A stretch of DNA of 64,000 nucleotides. Origin: a bacterium (GTDB lineage: Bacteria; UBP15; UBA6099). Numbering within the stretch: the first letter of the stretch is position 1; each line of letters opens with the position of its first letter. The DNA lies in the NCBI GenBank assembly GCA_029564595.1, contig JAKQPS010000001.1, positions 1 through 64,000 of the forward strand, read 5' to 3'. This document shows, piece by piece, positions 32,405-40,277 of the stretch. A model generated the notes under the pieces. The model did no database searches. It saw nothing but the letters and a program-made list of their open reading frames with translations, and had not been told where the DNA came from. The position numbers and the translations under genes are program-made.

Positions 32405-33115
32405 ATGGAAATAATTCCGATTAAATATGGAAACCTGATGGGGTCGCCGGACATGAAGGCGGCTTTGTTCGCGGCGGGAACATCCACCCCGGAAGCGGAC
32501 GCCGTGTGGGACGACCTCGCGGAGATAAAAATCCGCATGGGCCAGAACGGGGCTTCAACATCCCTGCTGATAAAAGAGAGCGGACACCCCTTGTTTCCGG
32601 CGGTGGTTGACCTGTCGTTCATCTGCGCCGACCCGGAAATGAGAGGCGAAAAATCCGTCGCCGCCGCGCTCGCCGCCCTCGATTCTAATGGCGTCTCCCC
32701 CGGCGAACTGAAGAGCCTTTTCGTGACCCATCCCCACGCAGACCACTTCGACCCGCGACTGACAGCGATGTTGCCGAACGCGCGCGTCTTTGCTCATCCC
32801 GCTTCGCGCATCCCCGGAGCCGAACCTCTCGACATGTCGTCGCTGCCCGCGTGGATGACCTGTCTGAACACGCCGGGGCACGGAACGCCGCATTGCAGCT
32901 ACATATTCGACGCGGCGCAGTGGGACCTCGCCATCGCCGCCGCCGGAGACCTCGTCATGAGCCATGCCCACTACCTGAGCATGGACAAGCCCCTTGCGTA
33001 CGCGGACCCTGAAGCCGGGCGCGCCAGCGTCCGCGCGCTCCTCGACGCCCTTTCCGCCCGCAACCTCAAATACCGCATGGTCATCCCCGGCCACGACATG
33101 CCTTTCTTCGTCTGA
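32405..33115 (+). CDS. Metallo-beta-lactamase-fold hydrolase
   Basis: 236 residues. The metal motif is FVTHPHADHFD (about 102-112: H-x-H-x-D-H), followed by TPGHGTPHCSY, with further metal ligands plausible in AGDLVMSHAHYL and the C-terminal PGHDMPFF. The fold hydrolyses thioesters, lactones, phosphodiesters or similar bonds. It is the last gene of the four-gene unit, where a sugar or aromatic catabolism role would fit all members, though not proven. Confidence 0.78.
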   Translation: MEIIPIKYGNLMGSPDMKAALFAAGTSTPEADAVWDDLAEIKIRMGQNGASTSLLIKESGHPLFPAVVDLSFICADPEMRGEKSVAAALAALDSNGVSPGELKSLFVTHPHADHFDPRLTAMLPNARVFAHPASRIPGAEPLDMSSLPAWMTCLNTPGHGTPHCSYIFDAAQWDLAIAAAGDLVMSHAHYLSMDKPLAYADPEAGRASVRALLDALSARNLKYRMVIPGHDMPFFV

Positions 33116-33251
33116 CGCCCCAAGCGGACATTGTTCTTCATCCGCCAACGTCGTTGGATATTTTGTAACAAACAAAGAAATATTCCGTATGTGTTTTATA
33201 ATAACGGTCATGATATAGTAAATAACTATAATTCAGAAAAGGAGGTGTCGC
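33116..33251. promoter_or_regulatory. Leader of the selenoprotein peroxiredoxin gene
   Basis: TATAAT hexamers at 33197-33202 and 33227-33232, and a perfect palindrome TATAGT-AAATA-ACTATA at 33214-33230 just before the AAAGGAGGT ribosome site. The palindrome overlaps the second TATAAT and could be an operator. No clear -35 pairs with either hexamer. Confidence 0.4.
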
Positions 33252-33968
33252 ATGGCGGGAAAACCGACGAAATGTGTTGAACCGGCAGGAGGGCCTGTTG
33301 TCGCGGAGCGAAGCTCTGAAAAGCCGATTACAACACAAGAAAAGGAGGCGAAAACCATGACGGCGAGAGTGGGAGGTCCGGCTCCCGATTTCGAGGCGGG
33401 AGCGTACTTCAACGGGCAGTTCCAGAACATCAAGCTATCAGACTACAAAGGGAAATGGGTGGCGCTTTGTTTTTATCCGGGCGACTTCACCTTCGTTTGA
33501 CCGACTGAATTGAGCGCGGTCGCGCTCAAATACAATGATTTGAAGAAACTCGGCGTGAATGTTCTCGCGATGAGCGCGGACAGCAGGTTCTCGCACAAAG
33601 TATGGCACGAGGAAGAGCTTTCAAAGATGGTTAAGGGCGGGATGCCGTTCCCTATGTTGTCTGACGCTGGCGGCAGAATAGGAAGCGTCTATGGAGTCTA
33701 TGACGATGCAAGCGGCGTCAATATCCGAGGCCGTTTTCTCATCGATCCGGATGGAATCATTCAAGCCGTCGAGATTATGACTCCTCCGGTGGGAAGGAAT
33801 TTCTCCGAACTGATAAGGCAGGCACAGGCGTTTCAGCTTGTAAGGAAAACCAAAGGGCAGGAAGTTACTCCCGCAGGCTGGAGACCCGGAAAGAAAACGC
33901 TGAAACCCGGCCCGGACCTCGTCGGAAAAGTATGGACGAAATGGAAACCCGAAGAAGCTTTCGAGTAA
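33252..33968 (+). CDS. prxU: Selenocysteine-containing peroxiredoxin (in-frame UGA at 33498-33500)
   Basis: Full product 238 residues with Sec at codon 83. Without recoding it would appear as two broken pieces, split by TGA at 33498-33500. The UGA lies in GDFTFV-U-PTEL, exactly where AhpC/TSA peroxiredoxins have the peroxidatic Cys (TFVCPTE), and the frame continues with [11 protein letters not shown] and VGGRF-like substrate motifs. A SECIS-like hairpin follows (33510-33529). The C-terminal resolving Cys of 2-Cys enzymes is replaced by Thr (EVTPAGWRP), as I recall for Geobacter-type Sec peroxiredoxins, whose N terminus (AERSSEKP) it also shares. Start: ATG 33252 with AAAGGAGGT. A second ATG at 33357 also has an AAAGGAGG and would place Sec at 48. 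It needs selA, selB, selC and selD elsewhere. Confidence 0.92.
33510..33529 (+). promoter_or_regulatory. Bacterial SECIS-like hairpin
   Basis: TTGAGCGC-GGTC-GCGCTCAA, eight base pairs around a GGUC tetraloop (or nine pairs closed by G-C), starting 9 bases after the UGA. The apical loop is 18-21 bases from the UGA and begins with G, as in the bacterial SECIS model (loop 16-37 bases downstream, a G in the first two loop positions). Confidence 0.8.
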
Positions 33969-33991
33969 TTGTCGAAAGCGAAAACGGAAAT

Positions 33992-34020
33992 AAAAAACCG
34001 GCTCAATGCCGGTTTTTTTT
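33992..34020 (+). terminator. Rho-independent terminator after the peroxiredoxin gene
   Basis: CCGGC-TCAAT-GCCGG stem flanked by an A-run before and TTTTTTTT after, ending 52 bases past the stop codon. Confidence 0.85.
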
Positions 34021-34243
34021 ATCCCGAATCCTTCATTAGGATTCGGGTTAAAACGAAACTAACCCTTTCATACCTGAATTCAGACTTGCAACCCCCCGGT
34101 TTGCTGGATTGTTTACATCGACTTTTCAACAGATAAATTGTCAGTATCAGAATAGTGTGGATTCATCCCGGCTTCATCATATTTATGACAATGCTGACGA
34201 TTGAAAACCTGTTCCAGACAAGCTTCGAAACGTCCATGCACTA

Positions 34244-34262
34244 TCCCTATCAATGATAGAGC
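34244..34262. promoter_or_regulatory. TetR-operator-like palindrome
   Basis: TCCCTATCAATGATAGAGC, with the palindromic core CTATCA-A-TGATAG (34247-34259). It matches the Tn10 tetO2 sequence (TCCCTATCAGTGATAGAGA) at 17 of 19 positions by my comparison from memory. No tetR gene is in the window. It lies 55-40 bases before the -10 box of the ATPase operon. Confidence 0.4.
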
Positions 34263-34278
34263 GTTGTTATTTATAAAA

Positions 34279-34315
34279 CGCACTAAAAATAAGTGCGCAT
34301 TATATAATAGTGCGC
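34279..34315 (+). promoter_or_regulatory. Promoter with three AGTGCG half-sites
   Basis: CGCACT (34279-34284) and AGTGCGC (34292-34298) form an inverted repeat; a second AGTGCGC lies at 34309-34315. A perfect -10 TATAAT (34303-34308) sits between the two direct copies, so a protein bound to these sites would cover the promoter. The ATG is at 34376. Confidence 0.5.
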
Positions 34316-34375
34316 TATGCTTGACGATATGGCATTCTCCGTTTAAACTATGATTAATCTTTAGGGGGTGGTCTC

Positions 34376-35587
34376 ATGGACATAATTACTGGAAATGCGG
34401 TTGTAGGAGAAAACTATTTATCGACAAGGAAATTTCTGGTCGATGATCTACGTGATTATTTGCTCAAAGGAAAGTCTGTCCTTATCGATTCTCCGCGAAG
34501 ATTTGGCAAAACCAGTGTGATTAAAGAGCTTGCTTTCCAAGAAGAATCTCAAAACAACATAAAGGTTCTATTTTTAGATATTGAATCAGAAAAGACGGTT
34601 GTTGCTTTCTGCAAAGCTTTTTTTAGAAAAGCATTGAGTCTTTTCCCAACCAAAGAAAGGAATGAGCGCCTTAAAACATTTTTTGGCGACACTTGGAATA
34701 TGATCGCCGGCCGTGTGAAAAAAATAGGGGGTCATGAGTTTGAACTAGAATTGAGCGAAAAGACTAGGGATTATGATTTTGAAAAATGGAAAGAAGTTAT
34801 AAACGCGCTATTGTCAGGACGGCCAACCGGCGGAGAAAAAGTTGTTTTCGCGTTTGACGAGTTCCCGGATTTAATTCTCAGTCTGAAAGAAAACGCGGAT
34901 AGCGCGGCGGACTTCACAAGGGAAGCCGACAGCCTGCTTGCGTGGCTGCGTTCGCTGCGTCAAGAAAGCGGGCAGCACACCTTTGTCTTCTGTGGTTCTA
35001 TCAATCTTAATTACACACTTGACGCTATCAGCGCGCGTCACCGGATCAACGACCTTGAAAGGCTAGTCGTTCCCGTTATGGACAAAGGCGAAACAGAGAA
35101 ATTGCTCGCGACTCTTTTTTCATCGATCGACATAAACGTGGAGCCTGCCGCCATGGAATTTCTTTCGGGGATTTGTATGGGAGGGCCTCCTTATTACGGC
35201 CAAATAGTAGCAAAAGAATTTAAAAGCGGAAGAGTGAAAAGTATTGACGTGGAAACAGCGATGGGTTTAGTAGACAATATGATATGCGGTGAAAACCACG
35301 ACCTCCGCCATCTCAGGACTCGGATGAACAAGCTTTTTTCCTCTTCTGAGCTTATGGTGGCCAAACTCATACTTAAGGCATTATGCGGCGCTGAAGCTAT
35401 GCCCGAAAAAAGAATTTATGACGAATACATCAGTGGCAAATGCGACTATGAGCTGTTTGCCGCCATACTCGGCAGGCTGACACACGAGGGATATGTCATG
35501 CGCGAACCCGAAGCGGGAGGCGGAATCAGGTTCGTTTCGCCGCTTTTTAAAAAGTGGTGGGCGAGCAAGGAGGAGTCGCGACAATGA
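34376..35587 (+). CDS. P-loop ATPase with C-terminal winged-helix-like domain
   Basis: 403 residues. Walker A DSPRRFGKTS (38-47), Walker B VVFAFDEFPDL (156-166) and a sensor-1-like FVFCGSIN (203-210) fit the archaeal-ATPase group of AAA/STAND-related P-loop proteins. Residues 325-400 read as a winged-helix domain (SELMVAKLILKAL ... LFAAILGRLTHEGYVMRE). This type often acts as a regulated NTPase in signalling or conflict systems. It is the first gene of a two-gene unit: the next ATG overlaps its stop (ATGA). Composition is more AT-rich than flanking genes, suggesting acquisition. The promoter shows palindromes (34244-34315). Confidence 0.75.
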   Translation: MDIITGNAVVGENYLSTRKFLVDDLRDYLLKGKSVLIDSPRRFGKTSVIKELAFQEESQNNIKVLFLDIESEKTVVAFCKAFFRKALSLFPTKERNERLKTFFGDTWNMIAGRVKKIGGHEFELELSEKTRDYDFEKWKEVINALLSGRPTGGEKVVFAFDEFPDLILSLKENADSAADFTREADSLLAWLRSLRQESGQHTFVFCGSINLNYTLDAISARHRINDLERLVVPVMDKGETEKLLATLFSSIDINVEPAAMEFLSGICMGGPPYYGQIVAKEFKSGRVKSIDVETAMGLVDNMICGENHDLRHLRTRMNKLFSSSELMVAKLILKALCGAEAMPEKRIYDEYISGKCDYELFAAILGRLTHEGYVMREPEAGGGIRFVSPLFKKWWASKEESRQ

Positions 35588-38500
35588 ACAACAAATACAA
35601 TCCACGGCTGTCGAGCCATGAAGAATTAAAAAACTCCTTCGTCGGCAGAGATGAGATTTTTAAAGATCTGCTTGACGATATAAGGCTGTTCGAGGGCAAG
35701 TCTGTCAAACAGCATTGGATGTTCTATGGGCCGAGGGGAATAGGGAAATCTCACCTTCTTACGCTTGCTTATCATGAAGTCAGAGAAGACAAGGAGCTAA
35801 GTAAAATCTGGATTCCCGCGCTTCTTCCAGAGGAAATAAGGCTGGTTTCCGATCTTTCCAGTTTTTTGGAGAAAGTCCTGCGGGAGATCATAAAAGAACT
35901 TGAGGCGTCGGCGGACGGCAAGGAGTCGGCGTTGAAACTGGAAGAGGCCGTGAAGACAGTCAAGGGAAGTCTTAAGGGCAAAGAAAAAAGCTCTGATAGG
36001 GCGCGGAGTTATTTCGCCATCATAGACGAAATCTTTAGTGACGGCAGGAAGCGAATTCTGCTGCTTGCGGAGAACATGCAAGGAATTATCGGACGAAGGA
36101 TGAGCGTTGACGAGCAGAAGCATTTAAGGTCGTTTTTGCAGACGAGCGACGCGCTCATGCTTGTTGGAACAGCAACAACCGTCTTTAAGGAACTCACGGA
36201 TCACAGCCTGCCGTTTTACAATTTTTTCAGACTTGAACGGCTTGAGGAGCTTTCCCAGTCGGACATGAAAAAACTGGTGTTTAATGCGATAGATAGACAT
36301 GGGCGAATGGAGGAAAAAGACAAGGCGGCGCTGGCGCCGAAGCTTAACGCCGCGCACGCGCTTACCGGTGGCAACCCGAGAATGGCCGCATTCATGGCCG
36401 ACATCGTCTGTTGCGAGAACGTTGAGCCTATGCTGGATTTCATGATGAAGCTCATCGACGAAATCACTCCTTATTACGACGCAGTGTTTAAGGATGTGCC
36501 GGAGCATCAGAGGAACATTTTAGACGTCCTAGCCGAATATGAACCCGCTCAATCACCTGCGGATATAGCATCAAAGCTGGAAACCGGAAGCGAGGTGATA
36601 AGGAACTATCTCATCCCTCTAAAAGACAACGGATATGTTCGCCTCGCCTTCTCCGACGGCAGATCGAACTATTACTGTTTGAATGAATATCTCTACAGGA
36701 TATTTCGTCAAACCAGAGGGGGGCATCCGAGGGACAGAGACCGCTGGGTCATCGAGTGGCTGTTTCTGCTTTATTCATTTGATGAAATTTCTGCTATGAG
36801 AGACAACGTTTCACAAGGCGTTGTGCGCGTCAGAGACACGAATGTCATGAAGAAACTTCTCTCCGAAGCGGTGGAATACCGTAAAGCAAATCCTGTTGAT
36901 TGCGACAATATTGAAATGATTAAACGCATGGCGGCGGGGACTTCTGACAAAGCGGAAAAGACAGAGCCGACAATGACTCTTGTAATAGAACATATTAAGA
37001 AAAAGGAATTTGAACAAGCGTTGGAAGAGATGCTAATAATGGAACAAGAAGATGAAAACCATACAAATAATGCCATGTTCAACTATGTGCGGGCTACTTG
37101 TTTATTTTGTCTTGGGCGTCATCAAGAAGCGATCGAATCATTTGAGTTAGCTGCCGGGCAAGACTCGGATGCGCATAGAATATTTAGCGGCTGGGGGAGC
37201 AATCTTATAGCTTTAAACAGATATGAAGAAGCGATAGAGAAGTTTGAGATTGCCGCGAGGATTAACCCTGAGGATCATTCAATATATTCCGGTTGGGGGC
37301 ACAGTCTTGTGGCTTTAAAAAAGTATAAAGAGGCCGCTGAAAAGTTTGAGACTGCCGCGCGTTTGAACTCTGATGATTATATGACATACTCAGGCTGGGG
37401 GCACAGCCTAAAGGTTTTAAATATGAATGAAGAAGCAATTGAGAAGTTTGAGATTGCCGCGCGGTTGAATCCCGGTGATTATCTTTCATACTCCGGCTGG
37501 GGGCACAGCCTTGCGGCTTTAAACAGACATGAAGAAGCTATTGAGAAGTTTGAGACTACTGCGCGCCTGAATCCCGATGATTATATGACATATTCCAGTT
37601 GGGGACGTAGCCTAATGGCTTTAAACAGACATGAAGAAGCCTCTGACAAGTTTGAGATTGCCGCGCGTATTAATCCTAAAGATTTTTTAATATACACTGG
37701 CTGGGGACGCAGCCTAATGGCTTTAAACAGGAATATAGAAGCCATGGAGAAGTTTGAGACCGCTGCGCGCCTGAATCCCGATGAATATTTAATATATCTT
37801 GTCTGGGGTAATAGTCTTGCGGCCTTAATTAAGCATAAAGAAGCCATGGAGAAGTTTGAGACCGCTGCGCGCCTGAATTCCGATGAATATTTGATATATC
37901 TTGTCTGGGGTAATAGTCTTGCGGCCTTAATAAGGCATGAAGAAGCTGTAGAGAAATTTGAGAATGCTGCGCGTTTAAACTCCGATGATTATATGACATA
38001 TTCCGGCTGGGGGCACAGCCTTGCAGCTTTAAACAGGCATGAAGAAGCTATTGAGAAGTTTGAGACTACTGCGCGCCTGAATCCCGATGATTATATGACA
38101 TACTCCAGTTGGGGACGTAGCCTAATGGCCTTAAACAGGCATGAAGAAGCAGCAGGAAAGTTTGAGATTGCCGAGAAATTAAACTCTGATTTCAATAACT
38201 TTACTGACCTAGCGTTATGTCAAATACAGATGGAGAGGTATGACGAAGCAACCCTTTCTTTAATCAGGGCATACAATTTGGAAACGCGCATAACAATATC
38301 CGGGATGCTGGAAGAAACGGCCGCGAAGCTGAATCCCGAAGAATATATCAGGATGTTTTATTCGAAGGTAGAGGGAGAGAGGTTCACGGATGAGGAGTTG
38401 TGCGCGCTTCTTGCGGCGACGGACAGGTTTGAGGCCGCAACGGACTGCTTAGCTAATCTTCGGGAAAAGTATCTGGTGAAGAAGGAGAACAATAAAAAGG

Positions 38501-38919
38501 ATTTAACGCTGTTGACAGGGTTGTTGAAAATGCAACTCTTCACCAAGCTTGCACGAGGCAAAGGGGCGGAGGCTTTGCGCGTCGTCGATTTGATTGTTGC
38601 GGCTCTGAAATATTACGGTGAAAATAATAAAGATGATAAAAATGAGAAAGAAGAAGAGATCCGCTTAATCACGTTTCGAGTCATTCTGCTTCATGCGGCG
38701 GGAAAATCTACGGAGAAAGATTCGGTTAATGTCATAGCGAGGTTCAAGGAAGCGCGAAATGATGGGTTGCCGTGGTCTGAAAGCCTTGAGATTGTGTTCA
38801 AGTGCATTACCGAGCCGAAAACATTAGAAGCAAAAAAAGCAATGGCGGACAAGGCGATAAGAGCGATTGTGAAAATCATCCGAAAACAAGCGAAAGAACT
38901 AGAATTCGCTGAAATATAG
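35584..38919 (+). CDS. Large P-loop ATPase with tandem TPR array
   Basis: 1111 residues from the ATG overlapping the upstream stop (ATGA), with an AAGGAGGAG site. The N-terminal ATPase (about 15-330) has Walker A GPRGIGKS (49-56). The expected Walker B reads RILLLAEN (157-164), so the first acidic position is Ala and an Asn follows the Glu; hydrolysis may be weak. LMLVGTAT (191-198) is the sensor-like strand and GGNPRMAAFM a sensor-2-like motif. A winged helix follows (about 315-385, ILDVLAEYEPAQSPADIASKL). Residues 497-870 are 11 or so 34-residue TPRs of the pattern YSGWGxSLxALNRxEEAIEKFExAARLNPDD. The C terminus is helical. The architecture resembles STAND NTPases, where TPRs sense a ligand. 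Function unknown. Confidence 0.78.
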   Translation: MNNKYNPRLSSHEELKNSFVGRDEIFKDLLDDIRLFEGKSVKQHWMFYGPRGIGKSHLLTLAYHEVREDKELSKIWIPALLPEEIRLVSDLSSFLEKVLREIIKELEASADGKESALKLEEAVKTVKGSLKGKEKSSDRARSYFAIIDEIFSDGRKRILLLAENMQGIIGRRMSVDEQKHLRSFLQTSDALMLVGTATTVFKELTDHSLPFYNFFRLERLEELSQSDMKKLVFNAIDRHGRMEEKDKAALAPKLNAAHALTGGNPRMAAFMADIVCCENVEPMLDFMMKLIDEITPYYDAVFKDVPEHQRNILDVLAEYEPAQSPADIASKLETGSEVIRNYLIPLKDNGYVRLAFSDGRSNYYCLNEYLYRIFRQTRGGHPRDRDRWVIEWLFLLYSFDEISAMRDNVSQGVVRVRDTNVMKKLLSEAVEYRKANPVDCDNIEMIKRMAAGTSDKAEKTEPTMTLVIEHIKKKEFEQALEEMLIMEQEDENHTNNAMFNYVRATCLFCLGRHQEAIESFELAAGQDSDAHRIFSGWGSNLIALNRYEEAIEKFEIAARINPEDHSIYSGWGHSLVALKKYKEAAEKFETAARLNSDDYMTYSGWGHSLKVLNMNEEAIEKFEIAARLNPGDYLSYSGWGHSLAALNRHEEAIEKFETTARLNPDDYMTYSSWGRSLMALNRHEEASDKFEIAARINPKDFLIYTGWGRSLMALNRNIEAMEKFETAARLNPDEYLIYLVWGNSLAALIKHKEAMEKFETAARLNSDEYLIYLVWGNSLAALIRHEEAVEKFENAARLNSDDYMTYSGWGHSLAALNRHEEAIEKFETTARLNPDDYMTYSSWGRSLMALNRHEEAAGKFEIAEKLNSDFNNFTDLALCQIQMERYDEATLSLIRAYNLETRITISGMLEETAAKLNPEEYIRMFYSKVEGERFTDEELCALLAATDRFEAATDCLANLREKYLVKKENNKKDLTLLTGLLKMQLFTKLARGKGAEALRVVDLIVAALKYYGENNKDDKNEKEEEIRLITFRVILLHAAGKSTEKDSVNVIARFKEARNDGLPWSESLEIVFKCITEPKTLEAKKAMADKAIRAIVKIIRKQAKELEFAEI
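37075..38195 (+). repeat. Tandem 102-bp repeats coding for TPRs
   Basis: Eleven units of 34 codons, several nearly identical at the base level. Units 5-6 and units 10-11 are almost the same pair (SGWGHSLAALNRHEEAIEK, then SSWGRSLMALNRHEEA), pointing to a recent two-unit duplication. Units 7-9 share a different variant (YLVWGNSLAAL). Confidence 0.85.
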
Positions 38920-39179
38920 AATACTGGTTACAATAATATTTTTATGAATGGTCGCCATAGGTGTTAAGAGAAAACTGCATTGTTGTGAGATTGATACAAG
39001 TAAACTTATATATTATTGCGGGTACGGGAAAATGGGTTCCCGCTTTCGCGGGAATGACAACAAAATAATAAAGGAATGTCGGTGATTCTTTATAACCACA
39101 AAGACACAGAGGCACAAAGAAATTAAAACGAAATTGCCAAGAAGAATGAAGGGCGAGATGCTGTGAGAAGAGTTCGGGG
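38920..39179. other. Intergenic region with REP-like and simple dispersed repeats
   Basis: Contains the TTCCCGC-TTTC-GCGGGAA hairpin at 39037-39054 and, at 39094-39124, the sequence ACCACAAAGACACAGAGGCA, which continues ACAAAGAAATT and resembles a widely dispersed bacterial repeat. No gene is visible. It marks the right border of the AT-rich ATPase island. Confidence 0.65.
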
Positions 39180-40277
39180 TTAAGGCAGCCAAACGGGGGG
39201 TGAAGCTGCAGCGGAGGCTCCGACTATGGCGGGGAAGGTCGGGACGCTTTCGTCGGATAGTTTTACCCAGATGTTTCCCAGATATGTGAAGACGAAAGAA
39301 TCGTCGTCCCGGCCCCATGCTAGGGAATCAAACTGTATGGTCGCGCCTGCGGGCGATTTGAAAGCGTTTTTCGATGTTTCCCCGGAAGCGACATCCGCGA
39401 CGTAAAACAAACCGTCGGCGGAACGCTCGTCGTAAACGAGAATTTTTTTGCCGGTGGGTGAAAAGCTGAATGCCGCGCCCCGCATCGCCGCGAAAGACGG
39501 CGTTCCTCCGTTTTCATCCGATGGCTTCAACGGAATGAAAACGCTTGAGACTTCGCCGCCGGAAGGGGCGGCGCGGTCGAAGCACAGCCGGGGAGAGCCG
39601 TCTCCCGGCGGGCATTTTTTGAGAGCCACCCAAAGCGAACCGTCTGCGGGATTCCACGCGGCGGAATGAAAGTCGGAGGTCAGCCGGGGAGCGAAAGACG
39701 AACCGTCGGAAGTAATGACAATCAGCAACTTGCGTTCCAAGTTCGAGAGCGAGATTAGGACTATGGCGGCGGCGGACGCGTCGGGCGACAGCGCCGGGCG
39801 GGCGAGAGCGTCCGGCGTTGAGTAAACCGCCCTCGGTTTTTCCTGCGAAAAATTGTAGATAGAGAGTTTAGAGACAGTCGCGCCGCGGTCAATGAAGGCC
39901 AGAGCGCCGCCGGAATGCGCGGCGGACGGCTGAGCGCCCGGAAAGAGCGCGGAGACTCCGGTCTCGGCTGGCCTAGAACGAGACAGAGTCCGGCCCGCCG
40001 CTTCGAACACAATCTCTCCTTTGATGTTTTTCCGCAAATCGAACAGCGTCGAGGCGCTGAACCCTGTTTCGTCGGAATGAATGTCGTCCATCCCCGCTAG
40101 CATTTCGACTAGTTCCTCGGAAGGAAGCGGCAGGGGGGACAGAGACCATTCTGCGGCGGGGAGAGAAAGGAGCGCGGGGCGGTCAGCGTCTTCAACCGCG
40201 GATGCGCGAAAAGCCGCAACGCCGATTATAGCCGCAAGCGAGAGCGCGATGATGAGTTTTCCGGATGCGATAGCCAC
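39180..40277 (-). CDS. Exported beta-propeller-like protein
   Basis: 365 residues with a signal peptide (LIIALSLAAIIGVAAFRASA). The body has repeated strand patterns of TolB/WD40-like propellers: GGALAFIDRGATVSKLSIYN, LARPALSPDASAAAIVLI, FSFSPTGKKILVYDE, FDSLAWGRDDDSFVFTYLGN. It is probably periplasmic. It is the second gene of a two-gene minus-strand unit with 40303-41628 (25-base gap). The role is unknown. Confidence 0.65.
   Translation of the reverse strand: MAIASGKLIIALSLAAIIGVAAFRASAVEDADRPALLSLPAAEWSLSPLPLPSEELVEMLAGMDDIHSDETGFSASTLFDLRKNIKGEIVFEAAGRTLSRSRPAETGVSALFPGAQPSAAHSGGALAFIDRGATVSKLSIYNFSQEKPRAVYSTPDALARPALSPDASAAAIVLISLSNLERKLLIVITSDGSSFAPRLTSDFHSAAWNPADGSLWVALKKCPPGDGSPRLCFDRAAPSGGEVSSVFIPLKPSDENGGTPSFAAMRGAAFSFSPTGKKILVYDERSADGLFYVADVASGETSKNAFKSPAGATIQFDSLAWGRDDDSFVFTYLGNIWVKLSDESVPTFPAIVGASAAASPPVWLP

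What the first reader, a model, noticed from the sequence alone, without database searches (positions are those of the whole stretch)
34376..38919. Two-gene ATPase system with a large TPR array, flanked by repeats and palindromic promoter sites
Overlapping genes (ATGA) encode a P-loop ATPase with a winged-helix tail and a second P-loop ATPase with a degenerate Walker B, a winged helix and about 11 near-identical TPR units. The pair is AT-richer than its surroundings and is bordered by repeat elements (34023-34047 and 39037-39054). The architecture fits STAND-like NTPases that sense foreign or damage signals, but no known effector domain (TIR, nuclease, protease) is visible in either protein. 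As such it is a candidate undescribed sensor or conflict pair.
Basis: inference. Interest (0 to 1): 0.7.

Follow-up and report, generated by a model that had tools for sequence, protein, structure and literature searches.

The report
Paired-ATPase candidate phage-defence module
Two overlapping genes encode related ATPases, one with an intact ATP-hydrolysis motif and one without it that carries a large repeat-protein arm; they travel together across at least five bacterial phyla and take turns with known anti-phage genes at one chromosomal site, so they are probably an undescribed phage-defence system, though how they would stop a phage is unknown.

Summary
The two ATPase genes are real. A (34376-35587, 403 aa) and B (35584-38919, 1111 aa) overlap by ATGA and lie in AT-rich DNA. 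They form a conserved unit: 47 A-type genes from the window's phylum, Nitrospirota, Planctomycetota, Pseudomonadota and Bacteroidota have B directly downstream, same strand (one more has a truncated B; two distant A-like genes have none). A and B trees mirror each other (r=0.86, best of 5000 permutations 0.21). The cores are homologous but asymmetric: A always keeps Walker-B Asp-Glu; B has Asn in place of Glu in all but 3 of about 45. B's C-terminus varies (none to 818 aa; TPRs here).

The distribution is patchy (1.5-4% of sampled genomes per phylum; 7/80 Psychrobacter). In Psychrobacter the pair always sits in one slot whose other occupants are R-M enzymes, AbiU, AbiJ, PARIS, OLD/TOPRIM, viperin, GmrSD and NACHT genes. 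In a ~93%-identical relative of the window genome, a TIR-like gene lies where the pair would be. Stand-alone B-TPR genes adjoin Pycsar systems on two plasmids.

Verdict: probable two-gene STAND/ORC-type defence module, not found in Pfam, NCBIfam, PADLOC 2.0 or the papers searched. Effector and trigger unknown; no experimental evidence. The repeats called borders are not borders.

The parts
34376..35587 (+). Gene A: 403-aa ATPase with C-terminal winged helix. Walker A PRRFGKTS, Walker B FAFDEFPD, GSI motif, C-terminal FVSPLFKKWW motif
   Evidence: best structural match 2qen (archaeal Walker ATPase), then ORC/Cdc6 and CED-4/NRC4
35584..38919 (+). Gene B: 1111-aa partner. ATPase core with Walker-B Glu replaced by Asn, winged helix, TPR superhelix, C-terminal helical domain
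35584..35587 (+). ATGA overlap of the A stop and B start (translational coupling inferred)
   Evidence: overlap or abutment seen in nearly all homologous pairs
37183..38202 (+). Ten in-register 34-aa (102-bp) TPR units, 57-97% DNA identity between units
34280..34313 (.). Two adjacent inverted repeats (GCACT-N7-AGTGC and a 1-mismatch copy) about 65-95 bp before gene A; possible operator, function not shown
33117..39072 (.). Accessory segment holding a peroxiredoxin gene and the A-B pair, absent from the sister genome G004, where a TIR-like gene lies instead

Best explanation
A and B form a two-gene, horizontally mobile anti-phage (conflict) module built from two homologous STAND/ORC-type ATPase-winged-helix subunits. 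Shown by sequence: the conserved pairing, the homologous cores, the intact Walker-B Asp-Glu in A against Asn in B, the variable C-terminal arm of B, the patchy distribution, and location in a slot shared with defence genes. Inferred: B is the nucleotide-binding but hydrolysis-poor sensor subunit, and its TPR or other helical arm recognises an infection cue. Binding relieves autoinhibition and B assembles with A, the hydrolysis-competent and more uniform subunit, into an NLR/ORC-like hetero-oligomer. Output then comes from A or the assembly (most likely winged-helix DNA engagement or ATP-driven remodelling that blocks phage replication or kills the cell), since no enzymatic effector domain is encoded. 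The output step is the least supported part.
For: Conserved unit: one search looked for A alone and returned 15 loci, all with B next to A. Profile searches gave hits in 10/294 Planctomycetota, 6/399 Pseudomonadota and 10/246 Nitrospirota genomes, with B downstream except at one contig edge and one weak hit. No third gene recurs outside Psychrobacter synteny. Mirror-tree r=0.865 against a permutation maximum of 0.21; 18 of 22 well-supported A splits are in the B tree. A and B cores are homologous (hhalign 98.5%, 328 columns). Active/degenerate asymmetry. Defence slot in Psychrobacter: flank gene in 79/80 genomes, pair in 7/80, alternatives include type IIG and type II R-M, AbiU, AbiJ, AriAB (1e-114), OLD/AriA, viperin (6e-92), GmrSD/NsnA, NACHT and RelA/SpoT. 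QatC/QatD lie upstream of the Moraxella pair. Solo B-TPR genes adjoin Pycsar (PycC 1e-184 and 2e-90, PycTM 1e-44). Sister-genome replacement by a TIR-like gene. Fold of A matches ORC/Cdc6 and CED-4/NRC4.
Against: No effector domain was found, and no experiment shows protection. The window's own neighbourhood holds no recognised defence gene, and most neighbours of the Nitrospirota and Planctomycetota pairs are not defence genes. The slot argument is guilt by association from one genus, without a matched control slot. A winged helix also fits transcriptional control or replication functions. Physical interaction of A and B is inferred only.
Confidence: 0.6

Rival explanations
1. Nucleotide-gated transcription regulator pair: B is a MalT/AfsR-like STAND sensor and A its partner, controlling host genes through winged helices.
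For: Winged helices in both; B profile weakly matches MarR/ArsR wHTH chains; palindromes upstream of A; AfsR-type NOD-TPR regulators exist (PMC10936776).
Against: No co-conserved target gene, patchy distribution and exchange with defence genes, strict two-ATPase pairing.
Confidence: 0.15
2. Mobile-element maintenance or integration ATPases (ORC/Cdc6-, TnsC- or IstB-like) that serve plasmids or islands.
For: A model resembles ORC/Cdc6; B profile matches VchTnsC at 8e-5 and ORC1/4 over the P-loop; several pairs are on plasmids.
Against: No recombinase, transposase or Rep gene recurs with the pair; many pairs are chromosomal; in Psychrobacter the pair is cargo without integration genes.
Confidence: 0.1
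3. Toxin-antitoxin-like or ATP-depleting pair: A is toxic when freed and B holds it in check.
For: Tight overlap and co-evolution; exchange with abortive-infection and toxin-antitoxin-like genes in the slot.
Against: Solo B genes without A exist; no toxin fold; both are large ATPases.
Confidence: 0.12

Closest known systems
STAND/NLR-like defence NTPases (Avs, bNACHT)
   Same: P-loop NTPase with winged helix and C-terminal repeat sensor; found with defence genes; Moraxella B passes the NACHT Pfam cut-off
   Different: Those carry an effector on the same protein or an enzymatic partner; here the partner is a second, homologous ATPase and no effector domain is seen
Archaeal ATPase_2 family (PF01637; PDB 2qen, 2fna) and ORC/Cdc6
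   Same: Best structural and profile matches of A
   Different: A and B score below the PF01637 cut-off; mobile two-gene operon with a hydrolysis-deficient TPR partner
VMAP/AP-ATPase ternary conflict systems (Kaur et al. 2020, PMC7159879)
   Same: STAND NTPases with TPR arms in variable conflict operons
   Different: No vWA, MoxR, protease or VMAP gene recurs here; the paired-ATPase layout was not found in term searches of that paper
MADS (Mad8 ATPase)
   Same: Very weak similarity of A to the mad8 model (E 0.04)
   Different: None of the other MADS genes form part of the unit

Membership tests
STAND NTPase | P-loop NTPase core with winged helix and GxP-type motif | tested here: met
   GGxP motif and winged helix conserved in both families; A model matches CED-4/NRC4 with TM about 0.58
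STAND NTPase | C-terminal superstructure-forming repeats as sensor | tested here: met
   TPR superhelix in window B and in Nitrospirota and Planctomycetota homologues; absent or unrecognised in several other B proteins
Avs / bNACHT defence protein | effector domain on the NTPase polypeptide | tested here: not met
   no nuclease, TIR or protease domain in A or B
Avs / bNACHT defence protein | demonstrated anti-phage activity | not testable with these tools
   needs phage assays
NACHT (PF05729) | passes Pfam gathering score | tested here: inconclusive
   Moraxella B 30.2 bits against 26.7; window B not listed (best 25 of 30 families shown)
ATPase_2 (PF01637) | passes Pfam gathering score | tested here: not met
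   A 19.9 and B 27.8 bits against cut-off 33.2
ORC/Cdc6 replication initiator | AAA+ core plus winged helix fold | tested here: met
   TM 0.40-0.53, rmsd 7-14 A, so fold-level only
ORC/Cdc6 replication initiator | origin binding or helicase loading | not testable with these tools
   none
TnsC/TniB transposition ATPase | linked transposase or TniQ gene | tested here: not met
   no recurrent neighbour
Any PADLOC 2.0.0 defence system | matches a system model over the ATPase regions | tested here: not met
   only weak P-loop and generic TPR matches

The most novel reading that the evidence does not exclude
A defence system with no separate effector enzyme, in which an ORC/NLR-like hetero-oligomer of an active and a hydrolysis-dead ATPase is itself the weapon, assembling on or remodelling phage DNA (or draining ATP) once B's exchangeable repeat arm binds a phage product.
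Probability: 0.22. Interest if true: 0.8.

Novelty: new variant of a known kind. Interest (0 to 1): 0.62.

Why it matters
STAND immunity is usually one protein that carries both sensor and effector. A widely spread pair of homologous ATPases with fixed catalytic asymmetry, an exchangeable sensor arm and no effector would either reveal a new output mechanism or link NLR-type sensing to ORC/TnsC-type DNA-bound ATPases. The Psychrobacter slot supplies many natural, testable versions in cultivable relatives.

Tried and rejected
Single-protein scans with A (genome and viral contigs) and B (viral contigs) found no relatives, and tblastn in phages found none. The 5-sequence alignment was too diverse for motif scanning, so a 3-sequence alignment was used. 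The mobile-element-border idea from the flanking repeats was rejected: 39037 is a 36-copy dispersed repeat. A third conserved operon gene was not found. Foldseek on whole B returned only TPR proteins among the listed hits, so B's ATPase was judged by profile instead. Rfam gave nothing above threshold in 33000-39500. Literature searches for a paired-ATPase defence system found no description; subscription journals and bioRxiv are not fully covered. The PADLOC copy is from 2023, so later-named systems could include it.

Full report
What is there. Gene A (34376-35587) and gene B (35584-38919) are intact ORFs on the + strand joined by an ATGA overlap in a segment of 41-48% GC, against about 52-61% on either side. 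A has Walker A PRRFGKTS and Walker B FAFDEFPD. B has Walker A GPRGIGKS and LLLAENM at Walker B, then a winged helix and a TPR array of ten in-register 34-aa units (57-97% DNA identity) within a predicted superhelix at residues about 497-866. Pfam places both only weakly (A: ATPase_2, 19.9 bits; B: AAA_16 and ATPase_2, below cut-off, plus strong TPR). NCBIfam and PADLOC name neither protein beyond generic TPR-type matches to B.

Conserved unit. tblastn in plasmids found A-B next to each other in three Moraxella osloensis plasmids, and A with a short B in a Segatella copri plasmid. A scan of 84,980 species genomes using A alone gave 15 loci (Nitrospirota at 42% identity, Albidovulum, Marinomonas, Planctomycetes, a gammaproteobacterium, Psychrobacter), and all 15 have B immediately downstream. 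Profile searches of 294 Planctomycetota, 399 Pseudomonadota and 246 Nitrospirota genomes found 10, 6 and 10 carriers. B follows A on the same strand, overlapping or abutting, in all but one weak hit (L037) and one contig-edge hit (L054). By my count 47 distinct A genes have B next to them, one (Methylomonas) has a truncated B remnant, and two distant A-like genes have none (L007, L037). All-against-all comparison of neighbours found no third recurring gene outside the Psychrobacter synteny. The A and B trees match (mirror r=0.865, permutation maximum 0.21; 18 of 22 strongly supported A splits are in the B tree). A and B evidently move and evolve as one unit.

Anatomy. The A and B cores are homologous over 328 columns (hhalign probability 98.5, E 1.5e-15), so the pair is an ancient duplication. 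A keeps Asp-Glu at Walker B in every sequence covering it. B has Asp/Glu-Asn, the catalytic Glu replaced by Asn, in all but three (L005 DE, L056 ED, L066 DS). A conserved GGxPR motif follows in B and a P-Y/H motif in A. The AF2 model of A (pLDDT 83, pTM 0.81) matches the archaeal Walker ATPase 2qen, ORC/Cdc6 and the STAND proteins CED-4 and NRC4. The A profile also matches 2fna by sequence (2.7e-6). B's profile weakly matches TnsC and ORC1/4 in the P-loop, and MarR-type winged helices. The C-terminus of B runs from nothing (L005) to 818 aa. It is TPR in the window, Nitrospirota, L015 and L057, and has no recognised family in Psychrobacter/Moraxella. A conserved core with an exchangeable arm is what a sensor should look like; that is inference.

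Defence linkage. (1) In Psychrobacter, 7 of 80 genomes carry the pair, always at one site next to a gene present in 79 of 80. I read 40 regions at this site. Between the nitronate monooxygenase gene and the 125/180-aa genes lies a variable slot. Apart from the pair it is empty or holds type IIG R-M with a specificity subunit, type II R-M, AbiU, AbiJ, an OLD/AriA-type TOPRIM ATPase, PARIS AriAB, viperin, GmrSD/NsnA, NACHT, RelA/SpoT, HNH, or unknown genes. By my count about 16 of 23 non-pair cargo loci have a defence-related hit, and at least 10 of those match a named PADLOC family. (2) Moraxella pNP7-2 has QatC and QatD genes upstream of the pair. (3) Stand-alone B-TPR genes in Sphingobium and Agrobacterium plasmids adjoin Pycsar genes (PycC 1.5e-90 and 1.8e-184, PycTM 1.3e-44, and an E1-E2 gene). 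(4) In the window's own lineage, genome G004 is about 93% identical on both sides but lacks 33117-39072 and has instead a 331-aa gene with a weak match to a TIR effector model (1.7e-7). Weaknesses: the slot comparison has no matched control, and most neighbours of Nitrospirota and Planctomycetota pairs are metabolic genes or unassigned.

Mechanism. Shown: pairing, homology, catalytic asymmetry, variable arm, mobility, association with defence genes. Inferred: B binds a cue through its arm and assembles with A, and A's hydrolysis drives or resets the complex. The output is unknown. Because no effector domain is present, I favour output by the assembly itself (DNA engagement through winged helices or ATP-driven remodelling), with low confidence. 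Rivals are a transcription regulator, element maintenance, or a toxin-antitoxin-like pair.

The 39037 repeat is one of 36 copies in the genome, and the 34023 hairpin is unrelated to it and unique in the window, so they do not delimit an element. The promoter palindromes are present, but single matches are not above chance. TPR units are similar, not near-identical.

Novelty. Not matched in Pfam, NCBIfam, PADLOC 2.0.0 or the literature held. The building blocks are known, and the paired, catalytically asymmetric layout without an effector appears undescribed within those limits; hence a new variant of a known kind.

Noticed in passing
window 33357-33968: AhpC/TSA peroxiredoxin with an in-frame TGA (33498-33500) exactly at the expected peroxidatic cysteine (DFTFV-U-PTE): candidate selenocysteine peroxiredoxin, in the same accessory segment as the pair and with no homologue at E<=1e-10 in the other six genomes of the phylum. 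SECIS element and selABC not checked.
   Followed up: partly
L082-L121 (Psychrobacter), between nitronate monooxygenase and 125/180-aa genes: A chromosomal defence hotspot with many alternative cargoes, including an unidentified 488-aa protein present in three genomes (L090, L112, L115) and other unknown ORFs that are candidate defence genes.
   Followed up: partly
L008:1043-4144 and L009:6959-10195: Stand-alone B-type ATPase-TPR genes without A lie next to Pycsar cyclase genes on two alphaproteobacterial plasmids; possibly an accessory Pycsar component.
   Followed up: partly
L129:13950-14945: 331-aa protein with a weak C-terminal match to a TIR effector model at the site where the window genome has the pair; possible alternative conflict gene.
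   Followed up: partly
L011:7122-14001: In a Moraxella plasmid the pair is followed by a 1248-aa protein with no Pfam match and a very large NPHP3_N-type NTPase; possible extended operon.
   Followed up: no
G000 genome-wide; window 9633, 9720, 39037: Dispersed 22-nt palindromic repeat TTCCCGCTTTCGCGGGAATGAC, 36 copies (up to 1 mismatch) in 4.4 Mb, often in small clusters.
   Followed up: partly
L026 and L012: Decayed copies: the Psychrobacter WY6 pair is broken by several interruptions, and Moraxella KSH gene A is interrupted by an IS5 element with B intact.
   Followed up: no
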